52,525 bases of DNA from Candidatus Termititenax persephonae (lineage in GTDB: Bacteria > Margulisbacteria > Termititenacia > Termititenacales > Termititenacaceae). Position numbers and translations under genes: made by a program. Every line of letters begins with the position of its first letter. Positions within the stretch are counted from its first letter, which is position 1. The notes under the pieces were generated by a model, which worked only from the letters and a program-made list of their open reading frames with translations, was not told the origin of the DNA and did no database searches. The stretch covers positions 1 to 52,525 of the forward strand of contig BGZO01000006.1 of assembly GCA_003864475.1 (NCBI GenBank), given 5' to 3'. Shown here in pieces: positions 50,581-52,525 of the stretch.

Positions 50581-50904
50581 ATGAAACTTGAGCAGGTACA
50601 GCAGTCTGTCCAGCATATCGAAAAAGCGGCGTTCAAGACAGGTATTGCCGCCGCGCAAAACAAAAATGTGCAGAGCCGCCAAGAAGCGGCGCACAATTTT
50701 GCGGCGGCTTTTCAAGCGGCGGATCGGGCCGTAACCGTGGCGCAGGCGGACAAAAAGCAGAAAGAACAGGAACAGAAAAAAAGGCAGAAACATTTTAGCA
50801 AAGAGGACTACGAGGGGTACAACGAATTGGAAGATGTTTTGAGCGAGATAGACGAGCGGCTGGAAAGAATGTTGGAGATTGCCAAACAGTTGGACGAAAA
50901 ATAA
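50581..50904 (+). CDS. Small coiled-coil-like protein, unknown function
   Basis: 107-aa ORF rich in K/E/Q heptads. Confidence 0.6.
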   Translation: MKLEQVQQSVQHIEKAAFKTGIAAAQNKNVQSRQEAAHNFAAAFQAADRAVTVAQADKKQKEQEQKKRQKHFSKEDYEGYNELEDVLSEIDERLERMLEIAKQLDEK

Positions 50905-51042: not shown

Positions 51043-51132
51043 CTGTACATCTTCCTAATAATTAAAGGGAGAAAAAAACGTACAAGAAAGCGAGTAGCGA
51101 TACTTTAAAATAACTTTTCGGGGGAAGACGGC

Positions 51133-52525
51133 ATGGATTTACAGGCGCGTGGCGCAGTCCAGATTCTTGATGACCGCTTAGCGGCCATTGGCCTCAACCC
51201 GAATGTCAAAATGGAAGCTGGTTATCTGACCTTGGCCGCCGAGATGGGAATCGGTGCTGTCGACACTTTTACCCCCCCCCCCCCACTAATAGCGGTAGCT
51301 TCTCGCGCAGGGGCGCAATATATAGCGTTGATGATGATTCTTCTTATATTTACAATCTCAAGGAGTATGATGTAACCGGGCGCTTGAGCGGCGACCGCGA
51401 CTCCTATTATCTGGTGTCTTACAATTCAGAGCAGACCATAGTCGACGCGGCTTTTGGCTACAGCGACCTCTCCGGCGCTTACAACAGTGTGGACACTTAC
51501 ATCGACCCCTTCGACCCGGAAATCACCAAGCTGCTAGGTCAAATCCCTGGCCTCGACGACCCGCGCCTCTCCGCCGAGGACAAGCTGGTCAAGGTTTACA
51601 ACTACATCATCAATAATTTCAGCTATGTGCCGGACGAGAAAGACGACTGGAACTTCGTCAGCGAGACGATTTATCGGCGCGGCGGCGACTGCGAAGACTT
51701 AGCTATCCTGCTCAGTTCGGCCATGATTGCGGTCTTGCTGGCGGAGGGCGTGGACTACCAGACCGCCAATGGGCGTATCGCGGCGGTGGCGGGCCGACAC
51801 GCCGTCTACGGCGACCATGTCTATGTCGAGTACAAGGCGGACGACGGCCAGGTTTATGTACTGGACGCGGCCTTTGCTGAGCAGGGCAATATTGAGCGGC
51901 TGTCTGATTTAAAAAAAAACAGCGAGGTGAACTTCACCGTCTACTTTCGTTTTAATGACAACAAGGTTTTTCTGGACGCGGCGGCCTCAAACAGCGCCGA
52001 GGCCAAAGCGTCCTCCCAGATTGACCCGGAGCAGGAATGTCTGCAACCGCTCTTGGAGCGGTTCGAGCGGGAGACGGATTTGCGGGACGCGACGCGCGAC
52101 GAGCTGACCCTGAAGCTTTTTAATTTTCTTAGGACGGAGTTTGAGATTGTCGATTTACAAGAATTTTTCCCCAGCCTGGAACTGCTAACCCAGACCAAGG
52201 TCGGCAACTCGCAAGGGTTGAGCCTGCTGCTGGTCAATGCCGCGCTGGCCATGGCGCATACGCTGGGTCTGGAGTTGCCCAATATCCGTCTCTGCGAGGC
52301 GGAGCGGGACGGTGAGAAACAGTACATTGTTATTTACGAGGACGAGCTGGGCATCGACCGCGTGCTGGACTTCACGGACAAGATTGTCGACCCGCAGATG
52401 CAGCTGGATTTGGTCAACACGCTCAAGGATTTGTTCTCCATCAACGCCTATATGCCCGCCCAGGATTTGGCGGGGCTGGTCAAGTACGGACGGGAGTACG
52501 GCTTGGGCGACGACCTCTACGGCCG
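51133..52525 (+). CDS. Transglutaminase-like (cysteine protease-fold) protein, frame interrupted by a C13 tract; runs off the window
   Basis: ORF from 51133 meets C13 at 51272-51284; the alternative frame from 51285 is open to the window end and encodes IIYRRGGDCEDLAILLSSAM...AVYGDHVYVEYKADDGQVYVLDAAF (Cys/His/Asp pattern). Confidence 0.75.

What the first reader, a model, noticed from the sequence alone, without database searches (positions are those of the whole stretch)
51133..52525. C13 homopolymer as a possible phase-variation switch in a transglutaminase-like protein
The ORF from 51133 enters a run of 13 C (51272-51284) and leaves in a frame that ends at 51375. The frame starting at 51285 is open to the window end (>1.2 kb) and clearly coding (GGDCEDLA...H...D pattern). 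11 or 14 C would join them. Long poly-C tracts inside a gene are the classical substrate for slipped-strand contingency loci, and the downstream frame is absent from the supplied ORF track.
Basis: seen in the sequence. Interest (0 to 1): 0.75.

Follow-up and report, generated by a model that had tools for sequence, protein, structure and literature searches.

The report
Poly-C switch in giant surface-protein gene
A run of 13 C's near the start of a gene for a giant (about 4,900-residue) cell-envelope-type protein of a termite-gut bacterium puts the gene out of frame, and because the same genome carries more than 30 such hypervariable runs in front of or inside surface-type genes, it is most likely one of a whole set of on/off phase-variation switches not previously described in this phylum as far as we could find.

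Summary
In detail: C13 at 51272-51284 (0 expected in shuffles) splits an ORF starting at 51133 from an open frame running to the window end. The two halves are one gene. Both align to an uninterrupted ORF in a same-genome paralog and in sister species. The window holds only the 5' end: its last 127 bp continue, at two assembly branches, into a 4,478-aa and a >3,600-aa open frame. The encoded domain is a LapG-like transglutaminase-fold domain with the C/H/D triad invariant in ten homologs.

The host is a Candidatus Termititenax relative (Margulisiibacteriota, termite gut). Its draft genome has 34 poly-C tracts of 11 or more; other families of the phylum have almost none. Lengths are bimodal, and paralogous tracts with conserved flanks range from 11 to 20. 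The tracts sit (i) in 5' coding regions (glycosyltransferases, FkbM methyltransferases, lipoproteins, this gene), (ii) in promoter spacers, or (iii) in short leader ORFs before terminator-like hairpins, as in the S. gallolyticus pil1 attenuator. Two orthologs of this gene carry type iii tracts about 180 bp upstream instead.

Slipped-strand phase variation is therefore well supported by comparison but not observed directly: no reads were available.

The parts
51120..51124 (+). Shine-Dalgarno-like GGGGG upstream of the ATG; a GGGGGAA-type site precedes the start of the homologs too
   Evidence: sequence; homolog upstream regions
51133..51271 (+). N-terminal coding part (46 codons) of the giant gene, before the tract
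   Evidence: homologous to the continuous N-terminus of paralog G000:C37 (Smith-Waterman Z 12.6), G007 (9.2), G003 (7.5), G001 (6.0)
51272..51284 (+). C13 tract (proline codons), proposed slippage switch; current length leaves the gene out of frame
51373..51375 (+). stop codon reached by the upstream frame with the present tract length (80-aa product)
51285..52525 (+). main coding frame of the giant protein, LapG/transglutaminase-fold domain; runs off the window
   Evidence: Pfam Transglut_core 9.5e-07; 83% identity to paralog C37, 60-62% to orthologs; AlphaFold2 model best PDB match LapG 4fgp E 8.7e-05
51690..51692 (+). catalytic Cys codon (GGDCED)
   Evidence: invariant C136 in 10 homologs
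51816..51818 (+). catalytic His codon (YGDHV)
   Evidence: invariant H178
51864..51866 (+). catalytic Asp codon (LDAAF)
   Evidence: invariant D194
52399..52525 (+). 127-bp assembly overlap shared with the starts of contigs C1 and C44, where the frame continues
   Evidence: exact suffix/prefix match of 127 bp
50581..50904 (+). small coiled-coil-like gene upstream; a similar gene lies just upstream of the G007 ortholog (conserved order)
   Evidence: upstream sequence of L052

Best explanation
The C13 run is a slipped-strand (contingency) tract inside the 5' coding region, about codon 47, of a single gene for a giant, probably surface or envelope, protein with a LapG/transglutaminase-fold N-terminal domain. 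Polymerase slippage adds or removes C's. One of the three lengths modulo 3 joins the two frames and gives the full protein (about 4,900 aa or more); the other two, including the present one, give a short dead-end peptide. It belongs to a genome-wide set of poly-C switches in Termititenacaceae that act on glycan-modifying enzymes, lipoproteins and other candidate surface proteins through coding tracts, promoter-spacer tracts and leader-ORF tracts. Shown here: the tract, the frame break, the one-gene homology, the intact downstream frame, the repertoire, and length diversity among paralogous tracts. Inferred: slippage in living cells, ON/OFF expression, surface location and benefit.
For: (1) Both halves match one uninterrupted ORF in relatives. 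The downstream frame has no ATG before the conserved domain, and its first start-like codon (TTG 51384) would delete conserved residues, so it needs the upstream start. (2) The rest of the gene is intact: 4,478 aa open on C1 and >3,606 on C44. Decay alone would not leave that. (3) Repertoire: 34 tracts of 11 or more in G000, 3 to about 39 in its seven family members, and 0 or very few in 30 genomes of other families. (4) In 286 kb of this genome C/G runs fall 158, 36, 5, 1, 1, 1 for lengths 5-10 and then 36 tracts appear at 11-22; A/T runs stop at 9 except one. (5) One repeated leader family in this genome has conserved flanks but tract lengths 11, 12, 12, 12, 13, 14, 15, 18, 20. (6) Tract-bearing genes are the usual phase-variable kinds: GT2, GT11, sugar transferase, UDP-galactopyranose mutase, FkbM methyltransferases, lipoproteins. 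(7) Two orthologs of this very gene, in Ca. T. aidoneus and MAG Gx481_bin108, have C21 and C17 in a leader ORF 178-193 bp upstream of the start. (8) MutS1 and MutL genes are found in the family (MutS1 only partial in G001), so the tracts are not simply a by-product of lost mismatch repair.
Against: No reads or second isolate were available, so length change at this tract is not shown. No relative examined has a tract at this exact codon. The contig is a short-read-type assembly in which a run length could be miscalled. Expression and location of the protein are unknown, and no signal peptide or anchor was recognised.
Confidence: 0.8

Rival explanations
1. Assembly or sequencing error: the true tract has a fixed in-frame length, and C13 is a miscall in an otherwise ordinary gene.
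For: Homopolymers are error-prone, and several contigs in related MAGs end in poly-C or poly-G, which looks artefactual.
Against: The tract lies 51 kb into a contig assembled with a 127-bp overlap. Even if the length is off by one or two, a long C run is there, the class is bimodal and family-specific, and lengths vary among paralogs. A miscalled length would not remove the switch.
Confidence: 0.1
2. The frame break is tolerated because ribosomes or RNA polymerase slip on poly-C, giving a constant fraction of full-length protein; the tract is a dose or recoding element, not a heritable switch.
For: Runs of this length are known substrates for transcriptional slippage (general knowledge).
Against: Wide length differences among paralogous tracts (11-20) show DNA-level instability. 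Promoter-spacer tracts cannot work by recoding.
Confidence: 0.07
3. A decaying paralog: one frameshifted copy among several giant genes (C37, C1/C44), on its way to becoming a pseudogene.
For: The genome has at least two related giant genes, so one copy could be dispensable.
Against: The frame is open for the remaining codons (4,478 on C1) with no second lesion, the catalytic triad is intact, and the only lesion is at a hypermutable tract of a class found all over the genome.
Confidence: 0.05
4. Two separate genes: the 80-aa ORF is a leader ORF that regulates the downstream gene, as in the leader class, rather than its N-terminus.
For: Leader ORFs with poly-C tracts are common in this genome, including upstream of two orthologs.
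Against: The 46 residues before the tract are homologous to the continuous N-terminus of paralogs (Z 12.6), and the downstream frame lacks a usable start before conserved sequence.
Confidence: 0.03

Closest known systems
Coding-region homopolymer contingency loci (poly-G/poly-C) of Campylobacter, Helicobacter and Neisseria
   Same: Long G/C run in the 5' part of a coding region; one of three lengths is in frame; targets are glycosyltransferases, methyltransferases and surface proteins; dozens per genome.
   Different: Different phylum (Margulisiibacteriota, termite gut symbionts); MutS1/MutL genes are present; the target here is a ~4,900-aa protein with a LapG-fold domain.
Streptococcus gallolyticus pil1/pil3 phase-variable leader-peptide attenuator (PMC3894217)
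   Same: A slippage tract in a short leader ORF decides whether ribosomes reach an intrinsic terminator before a surface gene. Many Termititenacaceae leaders have this anatomy, including the leader of the G003 ortholog of the window gene (hairpin and frame relations).
   Different: pil1 uses GCAGA repeats at two loci of one species; here it is a C homopolymer at many loci across a family. The window gene itself has the tract in its coding region instead. No function is shown here.
Neisseria meningitidis opc-type promoter-spacer poly-C (from general knowledge)
   Same: Genes in G000, G001, G002 and G006 have TTGACT, then C11-C14, then TATAAT or TACAAT with 16-17 bp between the boxes.
   Different: Unrelated genes; not the arrangement at the window locus.
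LapG / bacterial transglutaminase-like cysteine protease domain
   Same: Fold match (4fgp, E 8.7e-05) and C/H/D triad.
   Different: LapG is a small free periplasmic protease; here the domain is the N-terminus of a giant protein. Activity is untested.

Membership tests
Simple-sequence contingency locus (coding homopolymer) | Homopolymer well beyond chance inside a gene | tested here: met
   C13; 0 in 100 shuffles; bimodal run lengths in the genome
Simple-sequence contingency locus (coding homopolymer) | The tract separates two frames of one gene, joined at one length in three | tested here: met
   frames out of register; both halves homologous to one ORF
Simple-sequence contingency locus (coding homopolymer) | Tract length varies between cells or isolates at this locus | not testable with these tools
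   no reads or second isolate; only indirect: paralogous tracts of 11-20 C with conserved flanks
Simple-sequence contingency locus (coding homopolymer) | Expression switches with tract length | not testable with these tools
   needs an experiment
Simple-sequence contingency locus (coding homopolymer) | Tract conserved at the same codon in relatives | tested here: not met
   C37, G001, G003 and G007 homologs lack a tract at this codon; two have one in a leader upstream. Supportive when present but not a strict requirement for the class
pil1-type phase-variable attenuator (for the leader tracts, not the window tract) | Leader ORF in which only one frame reaches the terminator-like hairpin | tested here: met
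   22 loci with such a hairpin: the long frame reaches it in 21 and both other frames stop before it in all. Shuffle support is modest because loci are related (product 2.4e-4 for at least one open frame in 18 loci)
pil1-type phase-variable attenuator (for the leader tracts, not the window tract) | Translation of the leader relieves termination | not testable with these tools
   needs reporter assays
LapG/transglutaminase-fold cysteine enzyme | Fold and C/H/D triad | tested here: met
   Pfam PF01841 9.5e-07; invariant C136/H178/D194; Foldseek LapG
LapG/transglutaminase-fold cysteine enzyme | Protease or cross-linking activity | not testable with these tools
   needs a biochemical assay

The most novel reading that the evidence does not exclude
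Termititenacaceae use poly-C slippage as a genome-wide regulatory layer whose main device is a portable cassette (promoter, short leader ORF with poly-C, terminator-like hairpin) inserted before many surface-type genes. This would be a family-wide, homopolymer version of the pil1 attenuator. The giant LapG-domain protein is switched this way in two species and by a coding tract in a third, so different switch architectures arose at one gene.
Probability: 0.5. Interest if true: 0.78.

Novelty: new member of a known kind. Interest (0 to 1): 0.6.

Why it matters
Phase variation by homopolymer slippage is best known from animal and human pathogens. Here a mutualist or commensal lineage of the termite gut, whose named members attach to spirochaetes of gut protists (general knowledge of Ca. 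Termititenax), carries a set comparable in size to that of Campylobacter, with MutS1 and MutL genes present. That suggests cell-surface diversification also matters in multi-partner symbioses. It gives concrete loci for testing tract-length diversity in natural gut samples, and a set of leader tracts for testing whether slippage-switched attenuation is a general strategy rather than a pilus-specific one.

Tried and rejected
Loss of mismatch repair as the cause of the tracts: rejected, MutS1 and MutL are found in all eight family genomes (MutS1 only partial in G001). Integron attC-like sites (GTTAAGT before many tracts): considered from the motif and dropped, because the motif lies inside a leader ORF and no cassette array was seen. 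Codon-position substitution bias in the leader ORFs: no clear third-position excess (that set also contained one misgrouped locus), so peptide-level selection on the leader N-termini is not shown. Known domains in the rest of the giant protein: none in Pfam or NCBIfam beyond weak coiled-coil-type matches. Viral relatives: only two weak hits. The Ca. Termititenax genome paper is not in the library, and searches found no paper on phase variation in this group.

Full report
Observation. The run of 13 C at 51272-51284 is exact, is never produced in 100 dinucleotide shuffles of the window, and stands alone in the window, where the next longest C or G run is 6. The ORF that starts at 51133 leaves the run in a frame that stops at 51375. 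The frame that opens at 51285 has no stop up to the window end.

One gene, not two. The 46 residues before the tract align with the uninterrupted N-terminus of a paralog in the same genome (contig C37; Smith-Waterman Z 12.6 against 1,000 shuffles) and, more weakly, with G007 (9.2), G003 (7.5) and G001 (6.0). The residues after the tract are 83% identical to the paralog and 60-69% identical to several relatives. In those relatives both parts are one ORF, with a short variable linker where the window has the C run. The downstream frame has no ATG before the conserved domain, and starting at its first TTG would lose residues conserved in all homologs.

A giant protein. The window is the complete contig C6 of a 1.83-Mb, 201-contig draft genome. 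Its last 127 bases are identical to the first 127 of two other contigs, C1 and C44, in which the same frame continues for 4,478 codons and for more than 3,606 codons. The two continuations are about 90% identical in their first 1,650 residues, 71% in the best-scoring stretch after that and about 90% again near the end; whether they are two gene copies or two strains is open. Orthologs are 4,559 to 5,144 aa. A shorter relative type (about 2,300-2,600 aa, G005 and G006) has the same N-terminal domain followed by PKD and Ig-like repeats, as in surface proteins. The N-terminal domain matches Pfam Transglut_core, keeps the Cys-His-Asp triad in ten homologs, and its AlphaFold2 model (mean pLDDT 66) is closest to Legionella LapG among solved structures. 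So 'transglutaminase-like' is right for the fold; protease activity is as likely as cross-linking.

Who it is. Relatives in named records are Candidatus Termititenax aidoneus and Margulisiibacteriota MAGs with bin names such as Gx481_bin108 and Kf353_bin111. The family is Termititenacaceae.

A genome-wide repertoire. This draft genome has 34 C/G tracts of 11 or more. All seven other genomes of the family have some (3 to about 39), whereas most of 30 genomes from other families of the phylum have none or very few. In 286 kb of this genome, C/G run lengths drop to single cases at 8-10 and then reappear as 36 tracts of 11-22; A/T runs end at 9 with one exception. These stretches were chosen for their tracts, so the 11-22 class is over-represented relative to the short runs; the gap at 8-10 is the point. 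Some tracts in related MAGs lie at contig ends and may be read artefacts; those within 150 bp of a fetched end were set aside, leaving 99 internal tracts. MutS1 and MutL are found in the family, although MutS1 is only partial in the fragmented G001 assembly.

Three architectures. (i) Tract in the 5' coding region: the window gene, glycosyltransferases (GT2, DXD sugar transferase; a GT11 gene has its tract just upstream), UDP-galactopyranose mutase, several FkbM methyltransferases and lipoproteins. (ii) Tract as promoter spacer: TTGACT, then C11-C14, then TATAAT or TACAAT, with 16-17 bp between the boxes, before genes that include lipoproteins in G000, G001 and G006. (iii) Tract in a short leader ORF with its own ribosome site, 100-300 bp before a gene. 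In 22 such or similar loci with a terminator-like hairpin, the longest of the three frames after the tract reaches the hairpin in 21 (stop in the loop, in an arm or beyond), and both other frames stop before it in all 22. Shuffles make at least one open frame likely at each single locus; over 18 loci the product is 2.4e-4, and since the loci are related this is only moderate support. The anatomy is that of the S. gallolyticus pil1 system, where repeat slippage in a leader peptide controls a terminator (PMC3894217).

Length instability. One leader family of this genome (peptide ...LGHSDNRAA...LSxIYPPP) occurs nine times with conserved flanks and tract lengths 11, 12, 12, 12, 13, 14, 15, 18 and 20. 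This is the closest available evidence that the tracts change length much faster than their surroundings.

The same gene switched elsewhere. The giant-gene orthologs in Ca. T. aidoneus and in MAG Gx481_bin108 have no tract at the window's codon, but each has a poly-C leader ORF (C21 and C17) ending shortly before the gene. By the frames listed, the first is in the long-frame phase and the second is not. Other copies (G003:C59, the second G001 copy, G007) have no such tract near their start. So the gene has come under poly-C control in at least two different ways within the family.

Mechanism and limits. Slipped-strand mispairing at C13 would alternate the gene between full-length and truncated products; the assembled length is an OFF length. 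This is inferred. No reads, second isolate or expression data were available. Assembly miscall, slippage at the RNA or ribosome level, and ongoing decay remain possible but explain less.

Novelty. The window tract is a new member of a well-known kind (coding homopolymer contingency locus) in a lineage where I found none described (the key genome paper is not held). The family-wide use of homopolymer leader attenuators would be a new variant of the pil1 mechanism if confirmed.

Noticed in passing
L011, L013, L014, L018, L026, L027, L028, L031, L034, L040, L041, L084, L110, L115, L123, L131, L162 (just after the tract): A 24-nt inverted repeat (TTTTTGGCGTA..TACGCCAAAAA type) follows the poly-C in 24 loci of several species and in unrelated genes. 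It has some compensatory changes but also mismatches; its role is unknown.
   Followed up: partly
L018, L108, L109, L118, L139 versus L084, L086: The motif TTAACAGTTA before the tract is read in two different reading frames in two leader families (LTV-T-PPP and INSY-PPP), and upstream and downstream modules recur in different combinations across the tract. This suggests mobility or recombination of modules at the DNA level.
   Followed up: partly
window 51285-51294; L132, L141, L046: The bases right after the window tract (CTAATAGCG) recur after poly-C tracts in other species and other genes.
   Followed up: no
L025 (G000:C40) 6650, 9118, 10957, 12628: Four nearly identical C11-C12 tracts about 2 kb apart, each about 50 bp upstream of a small ORF of about 106-119 codons.
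   Followed up: no
L073 (G001:C1, upstream of the second giant-gene copy): Three tandem copies of a ~58-bp unit (AAAGGTACGACCGAACGCGG...GGCATCGGCC) upstream of the giant gene, which could be another variable element.
   Followed up: no
G000 contigs C1 and C44, starts: Two giant open frames with the same 127-bp start diverge to about 90% protein identity: either a duplicated giant gene or strain variation.
   Followed up: partly
Leaders L013, L019, L026, L028, L034: Genes downstream of this leader family carry tail-fibre-like motifs (for example 'STDDQYPSSKAA'), with no Pfam match in those tested.
   Followed up: partly
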